A stretch of DNA of 64,000 bases, taken from contig JAQRGA010000185.1 in the NCBI GenBank assembly GCA_029237695.1, positions 62,001 through 126,000 of the forward strand. Reading direction: 5' to 3'. Of this stretch, positions 1,973 through 25,518 are shown in pieces (the stretch's first letter is position 1; the number at the start of each line of letters is the position of its first letter). The DNA comes from Conchocele bisecta (taxonomy: Eukaryota; Mollusca; Bivalvia; Lucinida; Thyasiridae). The translations under genes and the position numbers were made by a program. The notes under the pieces were generated by a model. It saw only the letters and a program-made list of their open reading frames with translations. It had not been told where the DNA came from and did not search any database.

Positions 1973-1974
1973 CC

Positions 1975-4250: not shown

Positions 4251-4661
4251 GATGTCCAATAGTCTCATGCAAATATGCCATGTTTGTAAACATTGTCTGC
4301 CTTTGACACCTCTTTTAATGAATGGGACAATCTGAAATTAATACGGAAATGACTATACTAGTGTTTAAGGGTGCTCTAAGCCACATGTGATTGAACATAA
4401 ATCGCATGTCAGTATCGTTTATAGTATTTTATTCTTGTACATGTGCTCTAAGCAAACTGTTTATCCGGAAATGTTCCCAGCTCTGGAATTACGATCCTTC
4501 AACGCACATGCACGATAGAGGCGGGTATGTGTGACACATGTTTTAAATTTAAAGACAAAAATGCCCAACTATAATTGCCACAAGCAATTGCTAAAATATT
4601 GTTACAACAATGAACAATGCTGGAGATTTCACTACAGGAGAACAGTATATACGAGCCATAC

Positions 4662-5782: not shown

Positions 5783-5984
5783 GAAATTGAATAGCAATGC
5801 TATTACATGTGAGCTCCCCGCCCCCTATGGTCAGGGCAACAGTGAGCATGAGAGCCGCTATCCGGTATCCGCCAGACAATTATATGTATGTTATTGTTCA
5901 GGCTCCCTCGTATGTCATTCCTTAAAATGCAAAATGCGAACAATAACTTATACTTATCCGTCATTACAGGTATCTCTATTGACT

Positions 5985-6080
5985 CGCAGTGAAGCAGTTT
6001 GATTGGCTTAGCCTGATCTGTGGCACAGCTCAGATGCATAAGATAGAAATATTTGAAAATAATAAAATGTTGGCAAGATT
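5985..6080 (-). repeat. Dispersed repeat I fragment
   Basis: GTGAAGCAGTTTGATTGGCT followed by a TGTGGCACAGCTCAG segment matches the left flank of the polymerase palindrome (13.80-13.85 kb). Confidence 0.6.
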
Positions 6081-6130
6081 CGCACAGCATGTGGTGTAAG
6101 ATACATAAAGTCGCACCCAGGCTGGCCTAC

Positions 6131-6262
6131 TGATGCTCCAGTCATCGAAGTTAATCATGCCGGCTACGATGGCCCCGGCAATGGCGGCCAGAACTCCCGG
6201 CATGCCGTGCAGGTTGTGTACCCCGCACGTGTCATGGATCCGCAGCTTCTTCTCTATAAATG
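6131..6262 (-). CDS. Rh-type ammonium transporter, exon with HDTCG motif
   Basis: The minus-strand frame reads [15 protein letters not shown] then [13 protein letters not shown]. The His-Asp-Thr-Cys-Gly...Asn-Leu-His-Gly block is diagnostic of Rh/Rh50 transporters; it lies on a pore-lining helix of the family. The acceptor AG is at 6,263-6,264. A likely donor GTAGGCC follows the FDDW residues; that boundary is an estimate. The join to the upstream exon is out by one base as read, which could be an indel. It belongs with the exons at 7,989 and 8,504. Confidence 0.8.
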
Positions 6263-6431
6263 CTGCTTTGATAGAATAGATGAACTTAACGGCCCATATA
6301 CACAATATAATAGTATCATTTAGGGCAAAGTAAATTTAGATGAATTTGGATTTAATTTCTTGATCATGGTCTGCACATGTCGTTATTCAGTGAGTGAAAC
6401 ATCGGTCGTGCGCATAACAAATATATTTGAT

Positions 6432-6630
6432 ATGTGAGTGAAACCTCTCTAAACCCGATACCCTGGGAGGTACCCAGGGTGTCCGGCTTAGAGAGGATTC
6501 TCTGTAAATCAGGCATTTGATCATTATGTGCGATCACGAACAGACATTAGCCCCTGAGATAAATTACCAAGAAATTCATCAAATGTTAGATCCCAGGTTG
6601 GTGTCTGGTTTAGAGAGGTTCCACTGTATC
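6432..6630. repeat. MITE-F copy
   Basis: It begins GTGAAACCTCTCTAAACCCG and ends near TTTAGAGAGGTTCCACTGTA, an inverted pair. A poly-G run (~6,640-6,666) follows directly. Confidence 0.65.
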
Positions 6631-6805
6631 ATGCTGTATGGGGGGGGGGGGGGTTGTTGGGGGGGTTGATTCAACAGACTCCATAAGCCGCAGTTCTATA
6701 GTCATAGCCACATTCATTGTAATGGGAGTCTGACCCAAATATTCAGCGAATTAGTGAAAAATGTTGAGAATTGAAAGACGGAAGACTGGTGATTTACCAG
6801 GCGGC

Positions 6806-7044
6806 CGTTTCATTAAACTTTGTACCACTAAAAAAATGTTCGTAAGTGCAAACTTATGATAGTCTGTAAATGTCACATTAGCAATGTTTTCTTATCAACA
6901 ATTATTGGTTTTACATTTATTGAGCATAGGCTGCATGCAGCCTATGCTGAATAAATGTAAATCCGTCAATTATTGAAATTTCCAGACGATCATAATTTGC
7001 ACTTACGAACATTGTAGTCGTACGAAACTTAGTGAAACGGCCTC
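6806..7044. repeat. MITE-B, complete foldback copy
   Basis: Family ends at both sides and a central hairpin near 6,920 (GCATAGGCTGCATGCAGCCT). Confidence 0.8.
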
Positions 7045-7980
7045 CTGTTATTTTACTTGCATATCGTCACCGGCTACATCTACATTTATTGTTTCCCGAT
7101 CAATGAAAGAATAGTATTTCGTCTCAATTAATAGAAAATTGTGACGCTTTCGCCAATATCTATTAAATTAATCATTAAATGTTTAGCTTTGTTGTCATCA
7201 GTTCACGAGACGTAAAGCATATTACCGCCCACACACGCGCTCACTTCGTGTCACACCGCCAATGACATGCTAGTTTAGCGATTCGAGATCACGTTTAGGG
7301 GCGGAGCTTCGCGAGTGGGCTGGTAAACAGTAAGTACGTTATAGTTCACATATTGAATTTGCTCGCTACGAAATTAATTTATTAAAAATTCAATATATGA
7401 ATTATATCTATTACGTAATATGCAGAGCTAACTTTATCTGTGACAGCCTAACTACTAATGGCGAATTATATTGGCTGACCGACCGTCTAACCCACATCAA
7501 TGGACCACCGTCCGTTACTTAGTAACTTGCGCCGGTTACCAGACGAACATGCGTTTATACGATCGCTCTGAGTAGAATAGAGTGGCATCTCATCAGGGCA
7601 TGGGTGAATTTTCTCGACGTGAAATATTTCACGACGGCGCATAGTTTGTTATTTCCCTTTGCAAATATATTTATATAAATCCGGTCCTATGGTTAAGTTT
7701 AGCGTTTATTTCTGTGCAGTCTGATCTGAGTATACACTGTTTTCAATAAAATTAACGAGTGTCAAAATATGAATCTGCCAAATAATGCCGTTCCTGATCA
7801 ACTGTGCAGATATATAGGATAACCTGGATCAACACTAGTCTAAAACACTATAATAATACTATAACGGCCCCTTTACAGATCAAATCGTGCGGCAATACAA
7901 GCAATATGAACATTAACTACAATTTGACCGGATTTCTATAAATAAATTAAAAGGGAAATAACTAACTACGATCCATAATT
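7045..7980. other. Intron of the Rh-type gene; no other gene seen
   Basis: This is single-copy-looking AT-rich sequence between Rh exons on the minus strand. No ORF or RNA gene is recognisable. Confidence 0.5.
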
Positions 7981-7988
7981 GAGTTTAC

Positions 7989-8127
7989 CTGAATGAATCT
8001 GAAGCCTGTGATGGAGACGAAGCCGGAGACACAGCCCATCAGAAGGGCACCCCAGGGCTCCAGGGACATGGCTGCTGTCGTCCCCACGTCAACCCCGCCC
8101 GCCAGGGTCGCGTTCTGGATGTGGTCC
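7989..8127 (-). CDS. Rh-type ammonium transporter exon (HIQNATLAGG), one-base frameshift
   Basis: On the minus strand the acceptor CAG is at 8,128-8,130 and the donor GTAAAC at 7,983-7,988. The frame opens DHIQNATLA, an Rh-family signature. A second frame carries it on through SLEPWGALLMGC to a phase-0 end at FRFIQ. The block is 139 bp, whereas unbroken phase would need 138. The extra base lies in the G-run around 8,096-8,102 and would introduce a stop, so this is either a sequencing error in a GC-rich run or a true lesion. The phase at the upstream join (8,504) is consistent. The family role is ammonium transport. Confidence 0.8.
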
Positions 8128-8129
8128 TG

Positions 8130-8435
8130 GAAAATGAAACGAACGAAATACTAATTCTTGGAAACAAAATCATAAGTAGTGGGAACAAATTGTTAATTAG
8201 TGGGAACTAAATAATAGTTAATAATAAAGGTTAATTCGACGAACGAAATACTAATTCTTGGAAACAAAATCATAAGTAGTGGGAACAAATTGTTAATTAG
8301 TGGGACTAAATAATAGTTAATAATAAAGGTTAATTCGTGGGAATGAAATATTAATTCATGGGAACAAAATATTAATGAATAGGAATGAACTATTAACTCG
8401 TGGAAACAAATGCTAATTCGTGGGAATCAAAGAAA
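8130..8435. repeat. FB21-related decayed copy filling an Rh intron
   Basis: Degenerate FB21-like units occupy nearly the whole 376-bp intron between Rh exons. A 99-bp block is duplicated in tandem (8,141-8,239 and 8,240-8,337). The repeat begins within about 10 bp of the splice acceptor, so its T-rich reverse strand probably supplies the pyrimidine tract of that acceptor. Confidence 0.7.
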
Positions 8436-8503
8436 CATCTGAATCAAACTGACCATGTCCTCCCCGAGGCTCTGTACTTTGTGTAACTATGTAGTTTACA
8501 TAC

Positions 8504-8667
8504 TGCGGAAAATTTCCCTTTCTTGTTGTAAATAGCCGAGAATGCGAACGTGGCGAGGGTACAGCCACAGAGATAGAGGTACCTGTTCACATAGTCCCGA
8601 TGTTGTTCGTCCCCGTCCACTCCGCCACCGTTGAAACTCGGCCAGTACAGCCAGAGGAACACCGTCC
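8504..8667 (-). CDS. Rh-type ammonium transporter exon (FLWLYWPSFN), intact
   Basis: The minus-strand exon has acceptor CAG at 8,668-8,670 and donor GTATGT at 8,498-8,503. It encodes TVFLWLYWPSFN at its start, then DEQHRDYVNRYLYLCG and ends in a KKGKFSA segment. The Phe-Leu-Trp...Trp-Pro-Ser-Phe-Asn block is the best-known Rh signature. Its phase joins the 55-bp exon at 10,241 and the exon at 7,989 without conflict at either side. There is no lesion in this exon. Confidence 0.9.
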
Positions 8668-8734
8668 CTGGAAGAAGACCCTTGCTGACGAATTCAATGT
8701 AAAGCCTACATTAAAACGCATACGCTATTGTGGT

Positions 8735-8885
8735 AATGAATGGAGAAATGGGACTAATGGGATTAGTGATCAGTGTAGCTCCTGGTCAAATAGCAAACTC
8801 CTGTAGACTGGTAATGATATATATTGCTTATCAGAAGCATGGCGAACAGTGTAGATCCATCACCCATTTTTACAGTCACAGCCAC
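8735..8885 (+). repeat. MITE-A copy, shortened
   Basis: Starts GAATGGAGAAATGGGACTAA and ends with ATTTTTACAGTCACAGCCAC, the family's inverted end. Confidence 0.6.
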
Positions 8886-9084
8886 TATTTAGGTACGATT
8901 TGTACATGCTGTATATTAACAAAATTGCAATGTATTTTTGCATAAGCAATGTATGAACTTACCAGAACTGGTGTTTTATGCCAACATGTTCAGGATGGCA
9001 TCTACATGCAGTTGCTGAAACCACGTGTGACTCTTACACTGGGTTCCATGAGCACATTAAAGGAAAATGCCCATGTGCTATAAA

Positions 9085-9300
9085 CTACCGCCCGAGCTAA
9101 TCTTGCAAACATTTGGTGTTTTTTTTTGTTGTCGTTTCTCCAAATACGAGAATATTGTGCTTAAAATAGCAGCTTGATTGGCTGAGGCTGTTCTGTGATA
9201 CAACTCTTTGCTAGCCAATCAAACTGCTTCACTGCGAGTTGAGATTCCCAATAAATCTGCATAACGTTGGCATCTGGGCAAGATTATCGCGGGCGACGGT
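9085..9300 (+). repeat. Dispersed repeat I, uninterrupted copy
   Basis: It runs from the TACCGCCCGAGCTAATCTTG end through TTGTGCTTAAAATAGCAGCT, TTGATTGGCTGAGGCTG and ACTGCTTCACTGCGAGTTGA to GCAAGATTATCGCGGGCGAC. Its reverse complement reads straight through the site at which the polymerase palindrome is inserted elsewhere, so it serves as an empty-site paralogue. Confidence 0.75.
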
Positions 9301-9494
9301 CTACTGGTGTGGTTTACAGCACGGTACTAACAATGTTCAACCGCTGCAGTGGAATAGTTTGTGTACTGACTCTTGTAAGGCCTTGCTGTCTTGTTGACTT
9401 TTACTGCATCGGATTATTTTCATGTTGGCTGGGACATTTCAGTTTGATAGTTTGCCGTGCATCCTTCAGTATATGTGTTTTATATTAGCCGTGT

Positions 9495-10070
9495 TAGTAC
9501 GTACTATTCTACTGTATGTTTCACGAAACCTGCCCAAATTTTACGGCTATGTAAATAATACAAAAAAATATTTTTTTTTGACAATATTAAATTTTATAAA
9601 AATTTAAGAATGAACGTTCTTTTTATTTCGTAAAATTTGGTCAAAAATTGATTTTATTATGAAATATTATTTCTCTAGGAGAATTTAAAATTGGGGGAAA
9701 ATAGGTGGAAAACGTGGAGGAGGAGTCGAACAACTAAAACTTTTGGAAATGACTATGAAACTTGGCTAGATAGCTTGGAAATTATCTAACTAAGAAAACA
9801 AAAGTTAAATTTTGAAAATCGGTCCACTGTTTTCTAAAACTAGAAAAATGTCCCTATGTTAAATCCCCATAGACATCTACACTCTGTGAAGATGTCTATG
9901 GGGATTAAACATGGAGAATGATTTGTTCGCAATAAAATCAAATTGGATCAAATTTCATGAAATAAAAAGTAGACTCATTCTTAAATTTTGATAAACTTTA
10001 GTAAACAAATATTGTTTTTGCATTGTTTATATAGCCGTAAAAGTTGCGCAGGTTTCGTGAAACAGACAGT
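9495..10070. repeat. MITE-E, complete foldback copy
   Basis: Ends TTTCACGAAACCTGCCCAAA-like and TTGCGCAGGTTTCGTGAAAC are inverted. The centre at about 9,860-9,910 is a hairpin (CATAGACATCTACA / TGAAGATGTCTATGG). Confidence 0.75.
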
Positions 10071-10240
10071 AGTGATGTGTTGCCACGTTGGAGTCACCAT
10101 TATCGTCACTGTACATGCGATCCATGTATTCCTATCATGGCATCTTGCTTTGATTTGCAGTTTTATGGAGTCATTCATCACATTTGAATATCTTGTTATC
10201 TACATAACTCCGTTTTAAAGACATTACATGTAAACCTTAC

Positions 10241-10295
10241 CAATAAGTGAAAATATATCCGAGTGGATGAACATAGACTCGCCCGTATCTGTCGC
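10241..10295 (-). CDS. Rh-type ammonium transporter, short exon before FLW motif
   Basis: A 55-bp minus-strand exon with acceptor CAG at 10,296-10,298 and donor GTAAGG at 10,235-10,240. It encodes GESMFIHSDIFSLI and leaves one base, which pairs in phase with the two leading bases of the 8,667 exon. In Rh proteins a Ser-Asp-Leu-Phe-like segment directly precedes the Phe-Leu-Trp signature, so the order is right. Without the neighbouring exon it would be too short to recognise. Confidence 0.75.
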
Positions 10296-10299
10296 CTGT

Positions 10300-10885
10300 A
10301 ATAAGGGATCATAGCTAGTTATCTCCCTTTGAAGTTATGTATAGAAATCCTGTATAAATTATAAAGTTTGGGACTTATTGCTTGTTAAAAGGACGAATAT
10401 AGCAGGACTTGTTGTGACAACGAACCATTTTAGTATTGTTAACGATTGTTGATCCAGATCATCCTACGTACCTCCGTAATCTGATCCAGGGCTGTACCCA
10501 GTGTTCAGTAAGAAATAAACGCTCTGATACCACATAGGACCGGATCTCTATAAATAGATTTGCAAAAGGAAATAACTAGATAAGTTCCCTCATTGAAGGG
10601 TCAGTGTGAAGATGGGGATACTTTTATGAGGGAGTCCGTCCATTTATTCCGCTGGCCCTTTATGTACTAATCCGTGGTTGGAGCAGCAGTGGTATCAGTA
10701 GCGGTGGCAATAAATCAGCTATTTAACCTATTGTGGCGTTTGACAAACAATGGTCCGGGATCAAAATGGGCGGGACCCCATGGGTCATGTAGGTGTCACA
10801 CTTCAAATTTGACCATATATGGTCATGCTAAGTATCAAATCGAAGGTATCGACGAGACAATAACTCTGGAGAATTTATATTAGTT
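10300..10885. other. Rh intron; expected middle exons not found
   Basis: Between 10,300 and 11,800 an intact Rh gene should hold about 130 codons (after the GFG motif and up to the SDIF segment). I find no frame with those features, so they are lost, too diverged or located elsewhere. Confidence 0.4.
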
Positions 10886-11110
10886 ATGTATGGCAGTGAC
10901 TTGGGTAAAAGGGACTTATGGGTTTGCGACCAGTGTCGATCCATATCAGCCTGTGCATCCACGCAGTCTGATCAGGATCTGCACTGTTCGCCGTTCCATC
11001 AATGAAACACCCGTCGTGCTTCTAACACGCAACATAGATTGTTATCAGACGTACAGGGAGCGTGTTATTTTACCAGAAGCTACACCGATCACACATCCCA
11101 TAACCCCAAT
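10885..11110 (+). repeat. MITE-A copy
   Basis: TATGGCAGTGACTTGGGTAA at the left; GATCAGGATCTGCACTGTTC in the middle. The right end is degraded. Confidence 0.65.
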
Positions 11111-11269
11111 TTATACCGTCCACATAGTGAGTATGTGCCGTGAAACTGTGAATACTACCTAATCACTGTGTATGAATATGTGTGGTTGTCATACAAGTCG
11201 ATTTTTCGCTTTTGAGAATGCGGCTGGGGATATTTTTTGCATTTTAAAGCTATGTGTAGATGTTTACGG

Positions 11270-11415
11270 GATAAATAGAATAGTAGACTAGTGCCGTGAA
11301 TGGGAAAATATATCTGACACGGCACGGAAACGGGATGTATTCGGTAGAGCCTCACCCATCCCGTTTCCTAAGCCTTGCCAGATATTTTTCCCATTCATGG
11401 CACTAACCTACTATT
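11270..11415. repeat. Inverted repeat around 11,345
   Basis: GCCGTGAATGGGAAAATATA (11,292-11,311) is mirrored by TATTTTTCCCATTCATGGCA (11,384-11,403), and ACGGGATGTATTC by CATCCCGTTTCC. A similar GTGAATGGGAAAAATA-type sequence is near 2,860. It is a short foldback of unknown family. Confidence 0.55.
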
Positions 11416-11699
11416 CTCTATTTCTTCAGCCACAGCCAGATTTGCGGTCTCATTGGAAGAAGGTGGCTATCTGCATGAGGGAGTTAGATTTTCTATACCA
11501 CTAACGCCTTCAACTACAAATCGGCGGTGGTTATATCTGAGTAGTGATATCAGTAGTAACTGAAATGGTCACAGGAAGAAGTGGGATAACTACATGGCTC
11601 CTTCACGTACACATCGACGGGATTAACTTTAGGTTAGAGAATACTAAATGGGTCTGCCTTTGGAATTTTTTGGTGCGGGCCTAGAAATCAAAATATGCT

Positions 11700-11798
11700 T
11701 AATGTACAAAGCAAGACAGACACGTGTTCCATGTGGTCTGGATCTACCCTGGTCGCAACACCAGAAGCCCCATTTCTCCATCCACAGCCTCATATTAC
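11700..11798 (-). repeat. MITE-A fragment abutting an Rh exon
   Basis: The end CCCATTTCTCCATCCACAGC lies 6-10 bp from the last recognisable codon of the Rh exon at 11,802, so the insertion appears to have cut that exon. Confidence 0.6.
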
Positions 11799-13852: not shown

Positions 13853-13859
13853 TCATCCA
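13853..13859. repeat. Target-site duplication, left copy (TCATCCA)
   Basis: The same seven bases follow the other end of the palindrome at 25,512-25,518. If the element is taken to start AG...CT, the shared direct repeat is 5 bp (CATCC). Polintons usually make 6-bp duplications, so the exact boundary is ambiguous by one base at each end. Confidence 0.8.
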
Positions 13860-13885
13860 GTAGTATATAGGGTATCACTTCATTA

Positions 13886-14178
13886 CCGCGACCCAGGGTA
13901 TCAGAATTAGCCCAATCCTGGGATACCAAGAGGGTAAAATTGGGTCATAATTTTCTATAATTAAGCACGAAAAAACTACCTCCCACCTATGACAGAGGTT
14001 GTCATAAATTTATAGGAGTGTAATATCCGTCCCCAAATGGAGGAGGTTTTCGGCTACCTTTTTCAGTTATAGGAGTGTAAAAATCGCTCCGACAACAACG
14101 GTTTTCGGCAACCATTGATACCGCGACCAGGGGTAAGAGAATTACCCCAAGTCTGGGATACCAAGAGGGTAAAATTTT
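13886..14178 (+). repeat. Subterminal direct repeats in the element end
   Basis: ACCGCGACCCAGGGTATCAG (13,886) recurs as ACCGCGACCAGGGGTAAGAG (~14,121), each followed by GGGATACCAAGAGGGTAAAA. Between them TATAGGAGTGTAA occurs twice (~14,011 and ~14,070). The same arrangement is mirrored at 25,200-25,487. Such repeats could be sites for an element-encoded DNA-binding protein (inference). Confidence 0.75.
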
Positions 14179-14309
14179 ATCATAAATTTATAACAAAATT
14201 ATGAGAATATATTTGAATTCGTATTGAACAAAGTAAACATAATATTTAAATATATTAAAAACTTCCAACCTTGGGAAAGTATATTTTAATAATATATAAG
14301 AACCAAAAA

Positions 14310-17300
14310 ATGTCACACGCTAAACAAAAACTATCACAAAAAGTTATGAAAACGGCACACCCTAAATTAACTCACACAATGATTGGTGAAAATGGGGGTA
14401 TAAATGCCACGAAAATTCCACAAAATTCTTCTCCTAAAATTAGGGAATTAAGAGCGGAATTAAAATCCTTTGGGGTGTCGTTTTCATCAAGATTAAGAGA
14501 AACGGGTTTAAATAAGCTTATAAATGAATAAAAAAATGAAGAATATATGAAAAGGATGAGCCGCGCGTTCGAATAGAAAATAAGGATTACAAAAAGATAG
14601 CGCAAAAGCTCGCAGATGAGTCCGTATTATCACTTAGAAGTAAAAATGTTGGCAAACCAAAAAACCGGTTCCCCAAAACGGGTTTACTAAAACAGTTGAT
14701 AGGGGAAAGGGATGAAATATTAGATGGGTATAAGGAAAATAAAGAAACCACAGTGAAAGGACGCCGGTTAACTACACTAACCATAAAAACCAAACTTCAG
14801 GTAGATAAGACACAAAAATTGATGACCTTGTTGCAACCTCTGCTGACTGGTAGCTTCTACCTTAGATATTCTTTTTCTTACAGATTAATCCACCAAGATG
14901 AGAAAGATTTTCGAGGAAGGCCTAAAAAAAAGTTAGGTTTTTTTATAAAAATCTTTTCGGTAGTCCCTGGTTCAGAGAATACACAGAAGTGCACAATTGG
15001 ATTAAAAAGCAAGAGGAAGAAAGATTAAATATAGATAAAATAGATCGACCAAACACGAAATGGAGGTTTGTAAGGTGGGTAACCACTAGTGTTAAACTAA
15101 TTTACGGAACGGCAACAAGAGACGTCGGAAGGGCGTCAGATCAAGTGGCCGGAGGGCACTTGCCTGAATGGTTGCGACACAAAAAAGGACTGAAACCACT
15201 AGATAGTTTTGATGATGATCTCTGTTTATTCCGGTGTTTAGCACTTCATACGACAGAATTACGCACTGACCGCTGTTTATCATTAACAAAAGATCTATCA
15301 GAAAAATATTTAAAATTTTGTTCCTCAAAAAAGTTGGATATTTCAAGCGGACCGGTTTTATTCGACGATCTGGATAAAATAGAAGAATGTTTTAAAATAG
15401 GTATTGATGCGTACGAACCCGCAGAAGATGGAACATGGTTTTTACGAAAAGTTGCCGCGAACTACGAAGAACTTGGTACCAAGAAGATGAAAATAGGTAT
15501 TTTTAATGATCACGCATTCCTTATTACAGATATGAATAAAGTTTGTAAAACGTATTGTTGTTCTGAGTGTAATCAACGATTTACACAATCGCACTGCTTG
15601 ACAAGACACGCAAAAACGTGTATGAGAGGAGAAACAAATGTATTGTGCAAAGCAGATAAAATAGATAGACCAACACTGCGTTCGAAAAATCGTTTTTTAT
15701 CCAATACCTAAATGCAGCAAAAAGCAATTACGTGGATAAACTCTTTTGAAGGACCACATATCCACACAGCTGTATGTGGTCACGGTGGAGAAAGAATGGT
15801 AGCTGGAGCTCCTGTAGATGGATTTTGTTCAGAAACGGAAACAGTTTATCAATTTCACGGCTGCTATTGGCACGGATGCCCAAAACACTGTCTTAAAGAT
15901 GCCAAGAAAATTTTTAAAAATCTAGGGTACGAGATGAATTGATCAGAGCAGAGTTTGAGTTAGTAGTTATTTGGGAATGTGAATATGATAGTAATTTTAA
16001 TAATTTGAAGAAAATAATTCGAAAGAATTAAAAAACCCTCCAACAACAATTTATCCATACCACATTGTATACGATTTTGAAGCGTATTTGGATCCTTCAT
16101 CCAAAACCCCTGTTACTAAAGATTTAGAATATATAAATGAACACGTTCCAATAAGTGTAAGTGTTGGAGATACACTGTCTAGAGTTATAACACACATATG
16201 TGATACTTCTCCTAAAAAATAAGTGCAATTTTTTCTTGAAGATATTAGTAAGCGAGCGCAAGCAATTCGTAAGGTTGTCGGTGAAGATAAAACATACGGA
16301 TTTCCCACCGATATGGACCGACTTTTCTCTTCACAGAGTGGTGAGATAAAGCGGTGGATAAACCAAGTGCCGGTAATTGGTTTTAATTCCAGCAACTATG
16401 ATATTAATTTAATAAAGAAACACTTAGTAGAGGCTTTAACTGATACTGTTAAAAAGGTGTTAGTAGGAAAGAAAGCAAATACGACAATCTTCCTATTTAC
16501 CCCAGAATTTAGGTTTTTGGATGTAAAATTATATCTTGCTCCGGGTATTGATTACGACCGATGGGTAAGGGCGTATGGATGTGAAGCAACAAAGTCTTTC
16601 TTTCCATAGAATGGTTTGATTCCCCCGATAAACTTAATTACGAGGGATTATTACCACCACTTAAAAACTGGGGGAATAAATTAAATCCCAGTAAAATTCT
16701 AACCCAAAACCAACTAGATGAGTGCAACAACATTTATAAAAACCTGAAAATGAAGAGTTTTAAAGATTGGTTGAAATATATAACAACTTAGATGTTGAAC
16801 CTTTCCTAGAAGCTATTGGTAAAATGACTACATTTTATAAAACAAAAGAGTAGATATATTTAAGGACGCGGTTACCCTTCCGGGGTTGCGTTACAATATA
16901 TTCTAAAAAAAAGGAACTATAAAACACCACGTAAAAGTTACAAAACTAAAGAGAATATAGCGGCAGACGCGATCTGTCCACCACTTTTCGCTCCCGACGA
17001 AGAAAGTTATGAAATTTTAAAAGGAGCACTAGTTGGAGGTCCATCAATTGTGTTTACAAGATATGCGGAAGCCGGAGTTTCTAGAATTAGATCAACTCCT
17101 GATGGAAACGGAAAACTCTGCAAAGCGGTGTTAGGATTTGATGCGAACGCTTTGTATTTATCCACACTTGCAAAAACAATGCCCTGCGGAAAGGGAACAT
17201 TATACAACGTATTTGCACCAAATAATCCGAAAAAACTTGCCGCCTTTTCAAAAACAGTATTATCAACGATTGGTTGGTTTGGGTTTGCTGAGGTTGATAT

Positions 17301-18396
17301 AGAAAGTTCCACAGAATTAAAAGAAAAGTTTTCAGAAATGTCCCCTATATTTATAAAACAGAGTTGTAGAAGAGGAAGAAGTTCCGGACCATATGCTCAG
17401 TTATTTGAAACAAACCAACCGTGAAAAAGGAAAATGTAAGAAGTTGGTAGGAGCAATGTCTGGTAAAAAAGTTTTATTATTCACACCATTATTAAAATGG
17501 TATTACAACATGGATTACAAATAACAGGTCTATACAGGATTAGACTATGAACCAGGAAAACCCTTTGAGTGGTTTGTTAAGGAAGTTACTGCCGCTAGAA
17601 GAGCCGGAGATGTTGATATATCAAAGTCCCCAATTGCAGATATTATGAAATTATTAGGAAATTCGTGTTGTGGAAAAATGATAGAATCTCCAGAAAAACA
17701 TCTTAACACAACCTATACAAAAGATGAAAAATGTGTAGACAGAGCATTAAGATCCGCGTATTTTCACGATTTGGAAGAGATAGGAGATGCGTACGAAATA
17801 TCATCAAGAAAAGTAAACGCTCGCATGACGCGTCCATTTCATTGTGGGATTGCTGTATACCAATATGCAAAACTAAGAATGTTAGAGTTTTATTATGACT
17901 TTATGGATAAGTACGTAGATCGGTCTGATTTTGAGTTAATACAGATGGATACTGACAGTTTATATATGGCAGTTAGTAAAAAAACAGGAGGATTAGATGG
18001 AATGATAAAACCACACTTACTTCAGGATTTAACAACAAACATAACAATCAATGGTTGGCATGGATAAATGGAGTAATAGAGATCCATATTATTTAAAACA
18101 GAGTTTTCAGGGAGACCGCGCTATAGCTCTATCCAGCAAGTGTTATTTAGTTGAGAAATTTGAAAATTCAGAATTAAAACATTCCGCAAAAGGTTTATCC
18201 GCACGCCAAAACAACCTTTCTTGGTTAAGATACAAAGAAGCACTTCACCCAACTGATATTGATAGGGGGAACAAACAGAGGTTTTAGAATGAATTCCGGT
18301 GTTATGAAAACTTATACACAATGCAAATTAGGTCTTTCCGCTTACTATGATAAAAGAAGAGTTTTATCAGACGGAATCCATACAGAACCTCTATAG
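14310..18396 (+). pseudogene. Protein-primed family-B DNA polymerase, left-arm copy (broken)
   Basis: The gene starts at ATG 14,310 (MSHAKQK); the terminal stop is at 18,394-18,396. The order is: a basic N-terminal region; a Phe-Asp-Asp-Asp-Leu-Cys-Leu-Phe-Arg-Cys block (~15,210); a C2H2 finger, CSECNQRFTQSHCLTRH (~15,565-15,617); and a nuclease-like VYQFHGCYWHGC block (~15,845-15,880). Then come the exonuclease motifs: DFEAYL (~16,073), FNSSNYD (~16,381) and a Tyr/Asp ExoIII region (~16,790). The polymerase motifs follow: DANALYL (~17,140), KLLGNSCCGK (~17,648) and DTDSLY (~17,950). The catalytic motifs are present but split by a stop at 14,529 and many single-base indels, so no one frame spans them. 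The family replicates linear DNA from a terminal protein. The right-arm copy is better preserved. Confidence 0.85.
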
Positions 18397-18454
18397 TTAA
18401 TTTCTTCAAATTATAAGAAAAAAAACAACAAAAAAACCGTAATTGACCACCCAC

Positions 18455-18694
18455 TTAACCAGCTGCAGTCACCGTTTGAACCTTTTTTGGTCTTCCAACC
18501 GGTCCTTTTAAGCGACGTTCCGGGTTTTTTTTCCAATCTTCTCTAGATAATCCGCTTATAAATTGGTCATTTTCCCACAAATCTGTAAGGCGTTTTGTCC
18601 CAATATGATATTTTTTCTTGATTTCCGTAGCAGGAACATGTCCCCGAGATCGAAGAATATCCAACAGAGCGTCTCGATTAAGAACAGACTTCAT
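18455..18694 (-). CDS. Small HTH / AT-hook protein, left-arm copy
   Basis: 79 residues, intact, with the same protein as the right-arm copy. It begins MKSVLNRDALLDILRSRG. A helix-turn-helix-like stretch (~residues 8-42: ATEIKKKYHIGTKRLTDLW) is followed by a basic AT-hook-like GPVGRPKK near residue 66. It lies tail-to-tail with the polymerase gene, only about 60 bp from its stop. It is probably a DNA-binding protein acting on the element's own AT-rich DNA (inference). Its full preservation in both arms contrasts with the broken polymerase frames. Confidence 0.7.
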   Translation of the reverse strand: MKSVLNRDALLDILRSRGHVPATEIKKKYHIGTKRLTDLWENDQFISGLSREDWKKNPERRLKGPVGRPKKVQTVTAAG

Positions 18695-18868
18695 AAATCT
18701 TCTTTATATAAAACACCACATATAAGTTTAACATAAACTCATAATTGGGAAAATTTAGTAATTATTTTTAACCAAGAAGTTAAGACAGAAAAACGTTTCA
18801 CGCACCTTTTTTGTAAAAATAATGGGAGGATTTTTTAAAAAAAATATATATAGAGGTGGTTCATATTG

Positions 18869-19087
18869 TTATTTAAAACATAGCTCGCCGCCCCAATAAT
18901 CCTGTCGTTTACGATCGTTGTGACTCCATTTATCGGTTACGGTACTATTGTTTTTACCAATCGGAGGAGTAACGTAATTATAATACAGAGGTATTATAGC
19001 AAGGGACAAAACCGCCAGAGCCGCCGCTGAATAAGACCAAGAAGAATCTTCCTCTTCTTGTTTTAACGTTTGTGCGAACCCAGAAAC
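18869..19087 (-). pseudogene. HTH-transmembrane gene, 3' fragment in the left arm
   Basis: This is the mirror image of the last ~72 codons of the gene at 19,901-20,450: the hydrophobic segment and the tail ending in GGELCFK are present. The N-terminal half is missing because homology between the arms stops at 19,087, immediately before the central foldback. Confidence 0.75.
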
Positions 19088-19090
19088 TGC

Positions 19091-19381
19091 TTAACAATGC
19101 TGAGTAGTTTCTTAGCAATGCTGACTAACTGATGAGCAGATAATGCCCAGAATGTCCATAATGGTGAACAAATGTTTAAAAAGTTTTATAATTATTGACA
19201 AAAAATCGGTCATTTGTCCCAAGTACTTATAAATTACTAAAGAATGTACCAATAGATTACTTTTAGTTGTACGGACTGATTTTTTGTCAATAATTATAAA
19301 ACTTTTTAAACATTTGTTCACCATTTTGGACATTCTGGGCATTAGTCAGCATTGCTAAGAAACTACTCAGCATTGTTAAGC
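19091..19381. repeat. 290-bp foldback at the arm junction
   Basis: CTTAACAATGCTGAGTAGTT (19,091) is mirrored by AACTACTCAGCATTGTTAAG (ending 19,381). An inner pair is AACAAATGTTTAAAAAGTTT and its complement, with a loop of about 70 bp. The pattern AGCATTACTCAGCA goes on just outside to about 19,420. I see no target duplication. It sits within 4 bp of the end of the left arm. Confidence 0.8.
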
Positions 19382-19496
19382 ATTACCTAGCATTACTCAG
19401 CAATTACTCAGCAACCCCTCAGTTAGAGTTAGTTATAATTGGTTCAAATAAACCGCTAATTTCTTCCGTTTCTTCGTAGAAAGCCGTATCCGTAAA

Positions 19497-19838
19497 CTAA
19501 TCGTTGATTTTAAACAGTTTTATAAAATTAGCCCCATTCTCTTCAACTAATCGTTTGTCAATCCTGTTTAACCACTTCATTTCGCTAATTTGTTTCTTAT
19601 AAACCCTACATAATTTTCGATATAATATTGGAAATGTGACTCTTTTATCGGTGCGTAATAGGTTGCGCTGATATTTCATGTACTCTATTTTACCTAATGA
19701 TTTCATGTTATAGTAATAGTCGTCAACAAGACCATTACAAAACTCCACTTCCCATTCTATTACTTTATCCATTTTATTATTAATAAGGTTTTTCAAATAT
19801 GCCTTTTTAAAACACATTTCTAAGAGTTTATCTCCCAT
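19497..19838 (-). CDS. Orphan 113-residue basic protein
   Basis: Starts MGDKLLEMCFKKAYLKNLI. It is rich in Lys, Arg, Tyr and Leu and has no family I recognise. Predicted features are mainly helical with no membrane segment. It is divergent from the HTH-transmembrane gene, with about 60 bp of AT-rich DNA between the two starts (TATTTATAAAC near 19,884 could be a TATA-type element). The frame stops at 19,497-19,499 (TAG) but remains open for a further ~26 acidic codons to a TGA, so the stop may be premature. This is the only copy, as it lies in the unique centre. Confidence 0.5.
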   Translation of the reverse strand: MGDKLLEMCFKKAYLKNLINNKMDKVIEWEVEFCNGLVDDYYYNMKSLGKIEYMKYQRNLLRTDKRVTFPILYRKLCRVYKKQISEMKWLNRIDKRLVEENGANFIKLFKIND

Positions 19839-19900
19839 TTTTATAAAATATTTTGGGCATTTTGAACATATTTTCTGCGCCTTATTTATAAACTATTAAT

Positions 19901-20450
19901 AATGCCAAAGCTCGTACTTATCTAACGAAAGTATAGAGAAGAAATAGTTTCATCCCGCGGAAAGGTAACCGCGGATCAACTTAAAAAGAAGTTTGGAATC
20001 GGTAGTGCGCGACTTAAAAAACTGTGGGATAATAACCCATCCCCTGGATTGTATTTACCTCCAGTATTACCTCCTACGGATTTACCTGCGAAAGAAAAAA
20101 CGATTACGCGGGTAACCGGTGGGGGGACAAATGAGCTTAACAAGTTAAGCAAGGGGGTGGGTGTCAATGAGCAATTCGTTAAAAATTTGGAAAAAATTAT
20201 TGATAATAAAAAAGAAACTCTCCAATGTGAGGTTTCTGGGTTCGCACAAACGTTAAAACAAGAAGAGGAAGATTCTTCTTGGTCTTATTCAGCGGCGGCT
20301 CTGGCGGTTTTGTCCCTTGCTATAATACCTCTGTATTATAATTACGTTACTCCTCCGATTGGTAAAAACAATAGTACCGTAACCGATAAATGGAGTCACA
20401 ACGATCGTAAACGACAGGATTATTGGGGCGGCGAGCTATGTTTTAAATAA
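19901..20450 (+). pseudogene. HTH plus C-terminal transmembrane protein (one frameshift)
   Basis: An ATG at 19,901 (MPKLVLI) is followed by a stop in its frame at 19,922-19,924. The main frame is open from 19,926. It carries KVTADQLKKKFGIGSARLKK, which matches the HTH of the neighbouring AT-hook gene position by position (KKK-F/Y-x-IG-S/T-x-RL-x-x-LW). A Pro-rich linker, an acidic stretch (QEEEDSS) and one hydrophobic helix (~20,290-20,345) follow, then a polar tail ending GGELCFK. A DNA-binding module joined to a membrane anchor suggests a protein that tethers element DNA to a membrane; this is inference only. A single indel near 19,920 separates start and body. Confidence 0.6.
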
Positions 20451-20626
20451 CAATATGAACCACCTCTATATATTTTTTTTAAAAAATCCTCCCATTATTT
20501 TACAAAAAAGGTGCGTGAAACGTTTTTCTGTCTTAACTTCCTGGTTAAAAATAATTACTAAAATTTTCCCAATTATGAGTTTATGTTAAACATTAATATG
20601 TGGTGTTTTATATATAAAGAAGATTT

Positions 20627-20866
20627 ATGAAGTCTGTTCTTAATCGAGACGCTCTGTTGGATATTCTTCGATCTCGGGGACATGTTCCTGCTACGGAAAT
20701 CAAGAAAAAATATCATATTGGGACAAAACGCCTTACAGATTTGTGGGAAAATGACCAATTTATAAGCGGATTATCTAGAGAAGATTGGAAAAAAAACCCG
20801 GAACGTCGCTTAAAAGGACCGGTTGGAAGACCAAAAAAGGTTCAAACGGTGACTGCAGCTGGTTAA
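20627..20866 (+). CDS. Small HTH / AT-hook protein, right-arm copy
   Basis: Identical in protein sequence to the copy at 18,455-18,694 (79 residues). It lies 176 bp downstream of the HTH-transmembrane gene on the same strand and converges on the polymerase gene. The shared HTH between the two neighbours points to an old tandem duplication followed by different C-termini (AT-hook in one, membrane helix in the other). Confidence 0.7.
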   Translation: MKSVLNRDALLDILRSRGHVPATEIKKKYHIGTKRLTDLWENDQFISGLSREDWKKNPERRLKGPVGRPKKVQTVTAAG

Positions 20867-20938
20867 GTGGGTGGTCAATTACGTTTTTTTTTTTGTTTTT
20901 TTTTTTGTTTTTTTTTTCTTATAATTTGAAGAAATTAA

Positions 20939-23900
20939 CTATAGAGGTTCTGTATGGATTCCGTCTGATAAAACTCTTATTTTATCATAGTAAGCGGAAA
21001 GACCTAATTTGCATTGTGTATAAGTTTTCATAACACCGGAATTCATTCTAAAACCTCTGTTTGTCCACCTTTCAATATCATTTGGGTGAAGTGTTCTTCT
21101 TTGTATTTTAACCAAGAAAGGTTGTTTTATTTTTTGGCGTGCGGATAAACCTTTTGCGGAATGTTTTAATTCTGCATTTTCAAATTTCTCAACTAAATAA
21201 CACTTGCTAGATAGAGCTATTGCGCGGTCTCCCTGAAACTCTGTTTTAAATAATCCAGGCTCTCTATTACTCCATTTATCCCATGCCAACCATTTATTTT
21301 TATTTTTTGTTTGTTGAAATCCTGAAGTAAGTGTGGTTTTATCATTCCATCTAATCCTCCTTTTTTTTTACTAACTGCCATATATAAACTGTCAGTATCC
21401 ATCTGTATTAACTCAAAATCAGACCGATCTACGTACTTATCCATAAAGTCATAATAAAACTCTAACATTCTTAGTTTTGCATATTGGTATACAGCAATCC
21501 CACAATGAAATGGACGCGTCATGCGAGCGTTTATTCTTTTCTTGATGATATTTCGTACGCATCTCCTATCTCTTCCAAATCGTGAAAATACGCGGATCTT
21601 AATGCTCTGTCTACACATTTTTCATCTTTTGTATAGGTTGTGTTAAGATGATTTTTCTGGAGATTCTATCATTTTTCCACAACACGAATTTCCTAATAAT
21701 TTCATAATATCTGCAATTGGGACTTTGATATATCAACATCTCCGGCTCTTCTAGCGGCAGTAACTTCCTTAACAAACCACTCAAAGGGTTTTCCTGGTTC
21801 ATAGTCTATAATCCTGTATAGACCTGTTATTTGTAATCCATGTTGTAAATACCATTTTAATAATGGTGTGAATAATAAAACTTTTTTACCAGACATTGCT
21901 CCTACCAACTTCTTACATTTTCCTTTTTCACGGTTGGTTTGTTTCAAATAACTGAGCATATGGTCCGGAACTTCTTCCTCTTCTACAACTCTGTTTATAA
22001 ATATAGGGGACATTTCTGAAAACTTTTCTTTTAATTTCTGTGGAACTTCTATATCAACCTCAGCAAACCCAAACCAATCGTTGGATAATACTGTTTTGAA
22101 AAGGCGGCAAGTTTTTTCCGGATTATTTGGTGCAAATACGTTGTATAATTTTCCCTTTCCGCAGGGCATTGTTTTTGCAAGTGTGGATAAATACAAAGCG
22201 TTCGCATCAAATCCTAACACCGCTTTGCAGAGTTTTCCGTTTCCATCAGGAGTTGATCTAATTCTAGAAACTCCGGCTTCCGCATATCTTGTAAACACAA
22301 TTGATGGACCTCCAACTAGTGCTCCTTTTAACATTTCATAACTTTCTTCGTCGGGATCGAAAAGTGGTGGACAGATCGCGTCTGCCGCTATACTCTCTTT
22401 AGTTTTGTAACTTTTTACGTGGTGTTTTATAGTTCCTTTTAGAATATATTGTAACGCAACCCCCGGAAGGGTAACCGCGTCCTTAAATATATCTACATCT
22501 TTTGTTTTATAAAATGTAGTCATTTTACCAATAGCTTCTAGGAAAGGTTCAACATCTAAGTTGTTATAATATTTCAACCAATCTTTAAAACTCTTCATTT
22601 TCAGGTTTTTATAAATGTTGTTGCACTCATCTAGTTGGTTTTGGGTTAGAATTTTACTGGGATTTAATTTATTCCCCAAGTTTTTAAGTGGTGGTAATCC
22701 CTCGTAATTAAGTTTATCGGGGGAATCAAACCATTCGTATGGAAAGAAAGACTTTGTTGCTTCACATCCATACGCCCTTACCCATCGGTCGTAATCAATA
22801 CCCGGAGCAAGATATAATTGACAATCCAAAAACCTAAATTCTGGGGTAAATAGGAAGATTGTCGTATTTGCTTTCTTTCCTACTAACACCTTTTTTAACA
22901 GTATCAGTTAAAGCCTCTACTAAGTGTTTCTTTATTAAATTAATATCATAGTTGCTGGAATTAAAACCAATTACCGGCACTTGGTTTATCCACCGCTTTA
23001 TCTCACCACTCTGTGAAGAGAAAAGTCGGTCCATATCGGTAGGGAAATCCGTATGTTTTATCTTCACCGACAACCTTACGAATTGCTTGCGCTCGCTTAC
23101 TAATATCTTCAAGAAAAAGTTGCACTAATTTTTTAGGAGAAGTATCACTATGTGTGTTATAACTTTAGACAGTGTATCTCCAACACTTACACTTATTGGA
23201 ACGTGTTCAATTATATATTCTAAATCTAATTTAATAACAGGCGTTTTTGGAGGAAGGATCCAAATACGCTTCAAAATCGTATACAATGTGGTATGGATAA
23301 ATTGTTGTTGGAGGGTTTTTTAATTCTTTCGAATTATTTTCTTCCAAATTATTAAAATTACTATCATATTCACATTCCCAAATAACTACTAACTCAAACT
23401 CTGCTCTGATCAATTCATCTCGTACCCTAGATTTTTTAATTTTTTCTTTGGCATCTTTAAGACAGTGTTTTGGGCATCCGTGCCAATAGCAGCCGTGAAA
23501 TTGATAAACTGTTTCCGTTTCTGAACAAAATCCATCTACAGGAGCTCCAGCTACCATTCTTTCTCCACTGTGACCACATACAGCTGTGTGGATATGTGGT
23601 CCTTCAAAAGAGTTTATCCACGTAATTGCTTTTTTGCTGCATTTAGGTATTGGATAAAACGCTTTTTCGAACGCAGATGTTGGTCTATCTATTTTATCTG
23701 CTTTGCACAATACATTTGTTTCTCCTCTCATACACGTTTTTGCGTGTCTTGTCAAGCAGTGCGATTGTGTAAATCGTTGATTACACTCAGAACAACAATA
23801 CGTTTTACAAACTTTATTCATATCTGTAATAAGGAATGCGTGATCATTAAAAATACCTATTTTCATCTTCTTGGTACCAAGTTCTTCGTAGTTCGCGGCA

Positions 23901-25061
23901 ACTTTTCGTAAAAACCATGTTCCATCTTCTGCGGGTTCGTACGCATCAATACCTATTTTAAAACATTCTTCTATTTTATCCAGATCGTCGAATAAAACCA
24001 AAAGGTCCGCTTGAAATATCCAACTTTTTTGAGGAACAAAATTTTAAATATTTTTCTGATAGATCTTTTGTTAATGATAAACAGCGGTCAGTGCGTAATT
24101 CTGTCGTATGAAGTGCTAAACACCGGAATAAACAGAGATCATCATCAAAACTATCTAGTGGTTTCAGTCCTTTTTTGTGTCGCAACCATTCAGCAAGTGC
24201 CCTCCGGCCACTTGATCTGACGCCCTTCCGACGTCTCTTGTTGCCGTTCCGTAAATTATTTTAACACTAGTGGTTACCCACCTTACAAACCTCCATTTCG
24301 TGTTTGGTCGATCTATTTTATCTATATTTAATCTTTCTTCCTCTTGCTTTTTAATCCAATTGTGCACTTCTGTGTATTCTCTGAACCAGGGACTACCGAA
24401 AAGGTTTTTATAAAAAACCAAACTTTTAGGCCTTCCTCGAAAATCTTTCTCATCTTGGTGGATTAATCTGTAAGAAAAAGAATATATAAGGTAGAAGCTA
24501 CCAGTCAGCAGAGGTTGCAACAAGGTCATCAATTTTTGTGTCTTATCTACCTGAAGTTTGGTTTTTATGGTTAGTGTAGTTAACCGGCGTCCTTTCACTG
24601 TGGTTTCTTTATTTTCCTTATACCCATCTAATAGTTCATCCCCTTCCCCTATCAACTGTTTTAGTAAACCCGTTTTGGGGAACCGGTTTTTTGGTTTGCC
24701 AACATTTTTACTTCTAAGTGATAATACGGACTCATCTGCGAGCTTTTGCGCTATCTTTTTGTAATCCTTATTTTCTATTCCCTTGAACATGCCGCGCGTG
24801 AACGCGCGGCTCATCCTTTTCATATATTCTTCATTTTTTGCTTCATTTATAAGCTTATTTAAACCCGTTTCTCTTAAACATTGATGAAAACGACACCCCA
24901 AAGGATTTTAATTCCGCTCTTAATTCCCTAATTTTAGGAGAAGAATTTTGTGGAATTTTCGTGGCATTTATACCCCCATTTTCACCAATCATTGTGTGAG
25001 TTAATTTAGGGTGTGCCGTTTTCATAACTTTTTGTGATAGTTTTTGTTTAGCGTGTGACAT
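20939..25061 (-). pseudogene. Protein-primed family-B DNA polymerase, right-arm copy (less broken)
   Basis: This is the better copy. ATG is at 25,061 and the stop at 20,939. Long frames cover 24,901-24,164 (N-terminal basic region), 24,001-23,231 (C2H2 finger, GCYWHGC nuclease-like block and ExoI DFEAYL) and 22,889-21,702 (ExoIII YYNNLDV, PolA motif DANALYL). Shorter ones cover the ExoII region (23,112-22,834), the DTDSLY motif (~21,380-21,405) and the AKGLSARQ tail (~21,150). At least seven frame changes separate them. The full gene would be well above 1,000 codons, consistent with Polinton/adintovirus polymerases that carry an N-terminal extension. The lesions mostly differ from those of the left arm. 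Confidence 0.85.
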
Positions 25062-25511
25062 TTTTTGGTTCTTATATATTATTAAAATATACTTTCCCAA
25101 GGTTGGAAGTTTTTAATATATTTAAATATTATGTTTACTTTGTTCAATACGAATTCAAATATATTCTCATAATTTTGTTATAAATTTATGATAAAATTTT
25201 ACCCTCTTGGTATCCCAGACTTGGGGTAATTCTCTTACCCCTGGTCGCGGTATCAATGGTTGACGAAAACCGTTGTTGTCGGAGCGATTTTTACACTCCC
25301 ATAACTGAAAAAGGTAGCCGAAAACCTCCTCCATTTGGGGACGGATATTACACTCCTATAAATTTATGACAACCTCTGTCATAGGTGGGAGGTAGTTTTT
25401 TCGTGCTTAATTATAGAAAATTATGACCCAATTTTACCCTCTTGGTATCCCAGGATTGGGCTAATTCTGATACCCTGGGTCGCGGTAATGAAGTGATACC
25501 TTATATACTAC

Positions 25512-25518
25512 TCATCCA
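25512..25518. repeat. Target-site duplication, right copy (TCATCCA)
   Basis: Matches 13,853-13,859. The sequence that follows continues the interrupted dispersed repeat I. Confidence 0.8.

What the first reader, a model, noticed from the sequence alone, without database searches (positions are those of the whole stretch)
13860..25511. An 11.65-kb palindrome with two facing DNA-polymerase genes behaves as one integrated element
Seen: the arms (13,860-19,087 and 20,232-25,511) are inverted copies, the outer ends both read GTAGTATATA, and TCATCCA flanks both sides. Known: Polintons/adintoviruses have short to moderate inverted ends and a single polymerase gene. Inference: this is either a new architecture with 5.2-kb inverted ends that each hold the polymerase, or a snap-back derivative of a protein-primed linear genome that was captured by integration. 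Both interpretations are unusual, and neither capsid nor integrase genes are present inside.
Basis: partly seen in the sequence, partly recalled or inferred. Interest (0 to 1): 0.9.

Follow-up and report, generated by a model that had tools for sequence, protein, structure and literature searches.

The report
Palindromic polymerase transposons, rewritten every cycle
In this 1.9-billion-base genome a family of mobile DNA elements carries two facing DNA-polymerase genes in one long palindrome, and the two halves are likely rewritten from a single template each time an element copies itself.

Summary
The palindrome is real, at 13,859-25,512, with ends (AGT)2//(ACT)2 and a 5-bp target-site duplication (CATCC). 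It is neither a one-off nor an assembly error: the genome holds at least 18 loci with facing pairs (window included), 13 found by end sequence and 5 more by polymerase sequence. I read 14 of them and one compound copy; 14 of these 15 sites have their own exact 5-bp duplication. Nine hold most of the polymerase gene in both arms.

Three copies are full palindromes and a fourth nearly so: arm + 0.85 kb, hairpin stem, loop of about 75 nt, and back. The window copy has lost one inner half. In all nine two-armed copies the arms are sisters on a tree (0.4-1.5% apart; different copies 4.3% on average). Changes shared by both arms look selected (pN/pS 0.32, no stops); changes private to one arm look neutral (0.89, 5 stops).

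Best reading: a Polinton-like replicon, without integrase in the frames tested, whose genome turns back at its central loop. Each insertion would start with identical arms, then drift. Integration by another element's integrase is inferred. Arm-to-arm gene conversion after insertion is the main rival.

The parts
13854..13858 (.). left copy of the 5-bp target-site duplication (CATCC)
   Evidence: exact match flush with both ends; 14 of 15 sites follow the same 5-bp rule
13859..19087 (+). left arm of the palindrome (terminal AGTAGT, polymerase reading inward, then inner genes); it lacks the 0.85-kb inner part that lies on both sides in full copies
13884..14192 (+). pair of 74-bp direct repeats in the terminal region (84% alike, 235 bp apart); role unknown, perhaps origin or promoter repeats (guess)
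   Evidence: D1
14307..18396 (+). left copy of the polymerase gene, broken frames (bounds approximate, from open pieces and the closing stop)
18455..18703 (-). left copy of the 82-aa gene (shares a 32-residue domain with the 174-aa frame)
18869..19087 (-). truncated left remnant of the 174-aa frame, with its hydrophobic stretch (membrane segment by eye, not predicted by a tool)
19088..19383 (.). central inverted repeat (hairpin stem and loop), flush with the left arm's inner end
19384..20231 (.). inner 0.85 kb, present only on the right side here; on both sides of the hairpin in E1, E4 and E12 and mostly so in E2
19497..19892 (-). 131-aa open frame in the inner part; no Pfam or PHROGs match, two weak NCBIfam matches far below cut-off
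19926..20450 (+). 174-aa open frame: the shared short domain plus a hydrophobic stretch; none of 51 candidates scored as a homologue
20232..25512 (-). right arm of the palindrome (ends ACTACT)
20618..20866 (+). right copy of the 82-aa gene
20939..25064 (-). right copy of the polymerase gene, broken frames (bounds approximate); the open piece 21,702-22,907 has 483 homologues, and most of the 120 listed carry PF03175
25179..25487 (-). mirror pair of the 74-bp direct repeats
   Evidence: D2
25513..25517 (.). right copy of the 5-bp target-site duplication (CATCC)

Best explanation
This is one copy of a multi-copy family of palindromic mobile elements, whose full copies have two facing polymerase genes and a central hairpin, and the two arms are likely made anew from one template in every replication cycle. 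Shown: copies at many sites with their own target duplications, a related hairpin at the centre of eight of nine two-armed copies, and arms of one copy that are each other's closest relatives. Inferred: the element's strand-displacing polymerase starts at a terminal repeat, copies inward to the centre, and the new strand folds back at the central loop and copies itself out to the end. The result would be a palindrome with two fresh, identical arms and two ends fit for integration. Inferred: the integrase comes from another element in the same genome, since none was found here. After insertion the arms drift apart, like the two LTRs of a retrovirus, and the centre loses sequence, often on one side, as in the window copy.
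For: Family: the 631-bp end gives 56 matches (40 of 474 candidates scored); the 40 longer ones form 13 facing pairs and no other close pair. The polymerase piece gives 40 matches (40 of 2,306 candidates scored): 9 facing pairs and no other close pair. Integration: exact 5-bp duplications at 14 of 15 sites, 0 of 210 mismatched flank pairs. Concerted arms: sisters in 9 of 9 two-armed copies; within 0.44-1.51%, between 0.89-7.35%, mean 4.34. Timing: changes shared by both arms 21 synonymous, 26 nonsynonymous, 0 stops; private changes 30, 104 and 5 (Fisher p = 0.004). pN/pS is 0.71 within and 0.28 between copies (8 two-armed copies within; 11 copies between). Turn-round point: from the edge of the centre inward, mirror identity is 151 of 151, 160 of 160 and 160 of 160 in E1, E4 and E12 and fails only in the last ~36 columns (20/36, 20/36, 17/37), a loop of about 75 nt, although centres of different copies are only 77-94% alike in these three. 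Precedent: a strand-displacing replisome switches template at inverted repeats and makes hairpins in vitro (PMC9484634, passages).
Against: No extrachromosomal or hairpin form was seen. C9 shares two frame-shifting gaps between its arms (59 others are private), which some arm-to-arm conversion could explain. Part of the private indels may be sequencing error: the window arms have 44 indels to 77 substitutions against 24 to 255 in five other repeat pairs, and inverted duplicates are read badly by nanopores (PMC7229812, abstract). Which platform was used is unknown. This would inflate private changes, though not create selection in the shared ones. Arm pairing has modest support in E3 (0.72), E1 (0.90) and the window (0.91). 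Shared-change counts are small and half come from E6 (the test holds without it, p = 0.004). That the polymerase is protein-primed rests on family homology; the fold of an N-terminal piece failed (pLDDT 35). Most single-ended copies were not read, so a full-length parent may exist.
Confidence: 0.68

Rival explanations
1. The arms are kept alike after insertion by arm-to-arm gene conversion in the chromosome, as in sex-chromosome palindromes; replication plays no part.
For: Arms of one copy are sisters in 9 of 9 and the centre stems are perfect mirrors in 3 of 3; long palindromes are known conversion substrates (recalled). Two frame-shifting gaps are shared by both arms of C9.
Against: Conversion would spread disabling changes to both arms, yet stops are 0 shared to 5 private and frame-shifting gaps 2 shared to 59 private (some gaps may be read errors). 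Changes shared by both arms look selected (pN/pS 0.32 against 0.89 for private ones), as if made while the element replicated.
Confidence: 0.15
2. An ordinary Polinton whose terminal inverted repeats have grown to about 5 kb, the rest of the element having been lost; each copy is a deletion derivative of a full-length parent.
For: End motif and polymerase family as in Polintons; deletion derivatives exist (E5-E7, E9, E10); S2 has one polymerase arm and other genes between the same ends.
Against: Eight of the nine two-armed copies have a related central hairpin at the same place, so they come from one palindrome, not from separate deletions. S2's other half is itself a palindrome of the E8 kind. 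No ATPase, integrase or protease match to an ordinary Polinton in 24 fetched stretches and the window; none of the 113 scored integrase places lies within 30 kb of a listed family place (113 of 10,288 candidates scored). But only 16 loci were read.
Confidence: 0.1
3. A snap-back (defective, fold-back) genome of one virus, integrated once.
For: Anatomy of the window copy alone.
Against: The same palindrome with a related centre sits at many sites with different target duplications, and the polymerase stayed under selection between copies.
Confidence: 0.03
4. Assembly or library artefact (fold-back reads joined within a terminal repeat).
For: Fold-back reads occur in nanopore genomic DNA at about 0.55-0.6% (PMC12870357, passages); the arms look under-polished.
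Against: 18 loci with facing pairs; arms of two-armed copies differ by 0.4-1.5%, have different flanks and exact duplications, and meet at a related centre.
Confidence: 0.03

Closest known systems
Polintons / Mavericks (Polintoviricetes; adintoviruses)
   Same: Family-B polymerase with PF03175 relatives; (AGT)2//(ACT)2 end motif as in vertebrate Mavericks (PMC8097293, passages); terminal inverted repeats; integrated with a short target duplication.
   Different: Two facing polymerase copies; no integrase found; arms of about 4-6.6 kb in the large copies against terminal repeats of 46-1,447 bp in intact vertebrate Mavericks; 5-bp instead of 6-bp duplication; central hairpin.
Fold-back (snap-back) defective genomes of protein-primed viruses such as adenovirus
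   Same: Inverted duplication of one end with a loop, as expected from strand-displacement replication (recalled; only the reference entry for Daniell 1976 was seen).
   Different: Here the palindrome is inherited, mobile and multi-copy, and its polymerase shows purifying selection.
[quoted passage not shown]
   Same: Much of the element is inverted repeat (Galileo seen only as a search listing with the start of its abstract, PMC3573991).
   Different: That abstract places Galileo with P elements by its transposase; here the inverted part holds a polymerase and no transposase match was found.
Hairpin-ended replicons (parvoviruses, poxviruses)
   Same: A hairpin as turn-round point that turns one strand into two joined arms (recalled).
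   Different: The hairpin is internal in the integrated form and the outer ends are Polinton-like.
LTR retrotransposons (as a clock)
   Same: Two long repeats identical at insertion that drift afterwards (recalled; inferred here).
   Different: Inverted, not direct; the repeats hold the polymerase gene.

Membership tests
[quoted passage not shown]
   family: open piece 21,702-22,907 has 483 homologues, PF03175 in most of the 120 listed, though a direct Pfam scan of the piece gave no PF03175. Priming itself was not tested.
Polinton / Maverick | end motif (AGT)2//(ACT)2 | tested here: met
   both ends at 14 of 15 sites; E7 lacks its left end; motif from PMC8097293
Polinton / Maverick | 6-bp target-site duplication | tested here: not met
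   exactly 5 bp at 14 of 15 sites, extension by one base mismatched in all 14
Polinton / Maverick | retrovirus-like integrase inside the element | tested here: not met
   no match in the window copy's scanned frames nor by tblastn with L001's integrase in the window and 24 fetched stretches (L001's own integrase is found by Pfam, and by the genome search at 113 other places)
Polinton / Maverick | capsid, packaging ATPase and protease genes | tested here: inconclusive
   no match, but Pfam did not recognise L001's presumed capsid frame either, and the E8-type genes have no family match, so a capsid is not excluded
Polinton / Maverick | N-terminal TP and vOTU domains of the polymerase | tested here: inconclusive
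   30% identity over 166 columns to the matching part of L001's polymerase; fold prediction failed
Foldback / Galileo transposons | transposase encoded by the element | tested here: not met
   no transposase match in 10 frames (Pfam) and 9 frames (PHROGs) of the window copy
Snap-back defective viral genome | arises anew from a full-length genome and depends on it | tested here: inconclusive
   related centre points to inheritance; dependence on a helper not testable

The most novel reading that the evidence does not exclude
A new class of mobile replicon: a genome that is a half-length hairpin when it replicates and a full palindrome when it integrates. Its replication rewrites one half from the other every cycle, so it starts each insertion with two identical polymerase genes. 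It may be segmented: a polymerase palindrome (the window kind) and a second, more recently spread palindrome with other genes and related ends (E8 kind), joined in S2.
Probability: 0.4. Interest if true: 0.95.

Novelty: new variant of a known kind. Interest (0 to 1): 0.87.

Why it matters
How Polintons and their kin replicate in animals has hardly been seen directly (recalled). A family whose arms are identical at birth, with a turn-round loop at the centre, would be a genomic footprint of strand-displacement replication with fold-back. It would give an LTR-like clock for dating insertions and a way to tell replication-stage from post-insertion mutations copy by copy. It also shows a genome plan (a palindrome with two facing polymerases) that I did not find described. 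Searches: titles and abstract starts only; of the 44 papers holding both 'Polinton' and 'palindrom', 40 were listed and none has a title about palindromic Polintons.

Tried and rejected
One-off snap-back and assembly artefact were my working ideas until the genome search answered; both then failed. I first read the arm differences as sequencing noise; this stays likely for part of the indels. The duplication was first taken as 6 or 7 bp; 15 sites settled 5 bp. From I had concluded that mirror identity drops at the hairpin's edge (92% between E1's hairpin halves, 89.5% in the window; E12 gave 100% over 68 columns and E2's centre is partly deleted). One search, on whole centres, corrects this: the stems are perfect mirrors and only the loop differs. 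Relatives were sought in viral contigs with the polymerase, an end motif and the neighbour gene: none confirmed. Bacterial and archaeal contigs gave 2 confirmed of 53 stretches: L001, an ordinary Polinton on a tubeworm-symbiont record, and L002, a weak match that I did not read. The 174-aa frame has no homologue. The fold of an N-terminal polymerase piece failed; the model of the neighbour protein is weak (pLDDT 60) and was not searched. Genome searches for the centre and the inner part alone did not complete. One search prints E6 as non-sister only because the tree was rooted on it; in its printed tree the E6 arms pair with support 1.0. One search missed two duplications (12 of 15); one search corrects this. 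For the pairing I used the 40 longer of the 56 end matches; the 16 shorter ones are not counted.
Full report
THE OBSERVATION. The palindrome is in the sequence. Its arms are 13,859-19,087 and 20,232-25,512: 5,308 aligned columns, 5,124 identical, 77 substitutions, 44 indels. The ends read AGTAGTATATA and TATATACTACT. Each arm holds a polymerase gene reading inward. The open piece at 21,702-22,907 matches 483 proteins, best E 6e-132, most of the 120 listed with PF03175; Pfam did not call the window piece itself. Both polymerase copies are broken: in the part covered by family proteins the frame changes 5 times in the left arm and 4 times in the right, none in the same column, one pair 12 columns apart. 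Further in are an 82-aa gene and a 174-aa frame that share a 32-residue domain, and a 131-aa frame. No integrase or capsid match was found in the 10 and 9 frames scanned. Between the arms lies a 296-bp inverted repeat (19,088-19,383), flush with the left arm's inner end and folding as DNA at -121.5 kcal/mol against a shuffled mean of -25, and then 0.85 kb that belongs to the right side only.

IT IS A FAMILY. The genome that holds the window has 1.89 billion bases in 1,196 contigs. The outer 631 bp match 56 places (40 of 474 candidates scored). The 40 longer matches form 13 facing pairs (window included), 14 singles and no other pair within 15 kb. The polymerase piece matches 40 places (40 of 2,306 candidates scored): 9 facing pairs, 22 singles, no other pair. 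Five of those 9 are not among the 13, so 18 loci have facing pairs. Singles may have mates that were not scored. I fetched all 12 other end pairs (E1-E12), one of the five further polymerase pairs (C9), and two of the 14 single ends (S1, S2).

STRUCTURE OF THE COPIES. E1, E4 and E12 (12-13 kb) are palindromes with the inner 0.85 kb on both sides of the central hairpin; E2 has it whole on one side and 570 of 806 nt on the other. E3, E11, C9 and the window copy keep a hairpin and have lost sequence next to it on one side. E6 (8.6 kb) has lost the centre. E5, E7, E9 and E10 are shorter, with one arm much reduced. E8 has related ends (87-88%) but other genes. Nine of the 14 facing pairs read hold most of the polymerase gene in both arms: window, E1-E4, E6, E11, E12, C9. 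So the window copy looks like a full palindrome that lost one inner half. tblastn with the polymerase of L001 (an ordinary Polinton) hits 22 of 27 stretches (24 fetched, window in three); its ATPase, integrase, protease and three other frames hit none.

INTEGRATION. Fourteen of 15 sites (window, E1-E12, C9, S2) have an exact 5-bp duplication flush with AGTAGT/ACTACT ends and no longer match; E7 lacks its left end. Swapping flanks between copies gives 0 of 210. Each of the 14 is therefore best read as its own integration, and S2 shows that a compound element also went in as one unit.

ARMS ARE REMADE. On a tree of the polymerase segment the two arms of a copy are sisters in all nine two-armed copies (supports 0.72-1.0). 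They differ by 0.44-1.51%; different copies differ by 0.89-7.35%, mean 4.34. Since eight of the nine have a related hairpin at the centre, the palindrome is older than the copies, so the arms must have been made alike again since. When? Codon changes shared by both arms and seen in no other copy: 21 synonymous, 26 nonsynonymous, no stop. Changes private to one arm: 30, 104 and 5 stops (Fisher p = 0.004, also without E6). pN/pS is about 0.32 for shared and 0.89 for private changes (site numbers). Frame-shifting gaps: 2 shared, both in C9, against 59 private. Pooled pN/pS was 0.71 between arms of one copy (8 copies) and 0.28 between copies (11). The simplest reading is that arms were identical when the element went in, that the polymerase was under selection until then, and that the arms have drifted since. 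Gene conversion in the chromosome should have spread some of the private damage to both arms.

THE TURN-ROUND POINT. In E1 mirror identity is 99.4% in a 1-kb arm stretch and 98.2% in the inner 0.85 kb; inner halves in E4, E12 and E2 are 100%, 99.5% and 99.3%. In the centre itself (387-396 nt) mirror identity from the edge inward is 151 of 151, 160 of 160 and 160 of 160 in E1, E4 and E12, and fails only in the last ~36 columns (20/36, 20/36, 17/37): a loop of about 75 nt. Between copies the same centres are 77-94% alike in the better orientation among these three, and 99.4% between E1 and the window. So likeness within a copy reaches down to the loop while copies differ, as expected if a strand folds back at the loop and copies itself. 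Template switching at inverted repeats by a strand-displacing replisome, giving hairpins, has been described in vitro (PMC9484634, passages).

MECHANISM, WITH STATUS. Shown: palindromic copies at many sites, target duplications, related centre, concerted arms, selection on the polymerase. Inferred: protein priming at the ends (from the family: PMC11071308, passages), fold-back at the central loop each cycle, borrowed integrase. The genome has 113 scored places with Polinton-type integrase (of 10,288 candidates), none within 30 kb of the 80 listed family places. I did not test whether those Polintons have the same ends.

A SECOND PALINDROME KIND. E8 (4.9 kb) has related ends and genes without family match. 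Its gene is found at 40 scored places (of 356 candidates), all 98-100% identical, with five facing pairs within 15 kb and none in another orientation (my count from the list). S2 joins a polymerase arm to an E8-type palindrome between one pair of ends. This kind seems to have spread more recently than the window's kind.

RELATION TO KNOWN KINDS. The end motif is that of vertebrate Mavericks, whose intact copies have terminal repeats of 46-1,447 bp and 6-bp duplications (PMC8097293, passages). Here the duplication is 5 bp, the whole half is repeated, and no integrase was found, so by these features it is not filed as a Polinton, though it is plainly related. It works like a snap-back genome that has become heritable.

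DATA QUALITY. The window arms have 44 indels to 77 substitutions; five other repeat pairs of the window have 24 to 255 (Fisher 1e-10). Over the polymerase segment, ratios within other copies are 0.07-1.22 and between copies 0.06-0.21 (six pairs). Inverted duplicates are read poorly by nanopores (PMC7229812, abstract). Part of the broken frames may therefore be read errors; I do not say which.

LIMITS. Only 16 family loci were read (window, E1-E12, C9, S1, S2). Four of the five extra polymerase pairs and 12 of 14 single ends were not read. S1 shows one arm and no second end within 13 kb.

Noticed in passing
L022:300-5247 (E8), L030/L042 (S2) and 40 places: A second palindrome kind with related ends (87-88%) but other genes, not recognised by Pfam or PHROGs. 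Its gene occurs at 40 scored places at 98-100% identity with five facing pairs. One S2 gene shares the KKYxIGTxRLxxxW domain with the window's 82-aa gene. Possibly a second segment of the same replicon.
   Followed up: partly
window 60,128-63,185: A second cluster of open frames that looks virus-like: the 409-aa frame at 61,030-62,259 has 438 homologues, none of the 120 listed with a Pfam domain, two named on records of a bivalve symbiont (Thiodiazotropha), probably host DNA there. Identity unknown; model confidence too low to search.
   Followed up: partly
window 23,231-24,043: This polymerase piece has a weak match to a phage endonuclease family (phrog_13076, E 5e-4) and to a C2H2 zinc finger (E 0.08, below cut-off), so extra domains may sit in the polymerase's N-terminal half.
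   Followed up: no
window 38,061-38,702: Frame with a phage-integrase SAM-like N-terminal domain (PF13495, E 3e-5, just below cut-off), suggesting a tyrosine-recombinase element.
   Followed up: no
window 52,703-54,630: Two overlapping frames; the first matches a reverse transcriptase (PF00078, E 5e-27).
   Followed up: no
window 164-645, 5,429-5,762, 35,107-35,371, 49,870-50,252, 52,730-53,054: A short repeat family that matches itself in both orientations at many offsets (about 74-88%), satellite-like; one array runs into the reverse-transcriptase frame.
   Followed up: no
L001 (QGON01000029.1), 1-11,769: A contig filed as a bacterial endosymbiont of the tubeworm Escarpia laminata carries an ordinary Polinton (polymerase, adenovirus-IVa2-like ATPase, rve integrase with chromodomain, weak adenovirus-protease match below cut-off), so probably host DNA in a symbiont bin.
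   Followed up: partly
G000, 113 places: The host genome is rich in Polinton-type integrases (113 of 10,288 candidates scored), many with open frames, so ordinary Polintons may have been active there recently.
   Followed up: no
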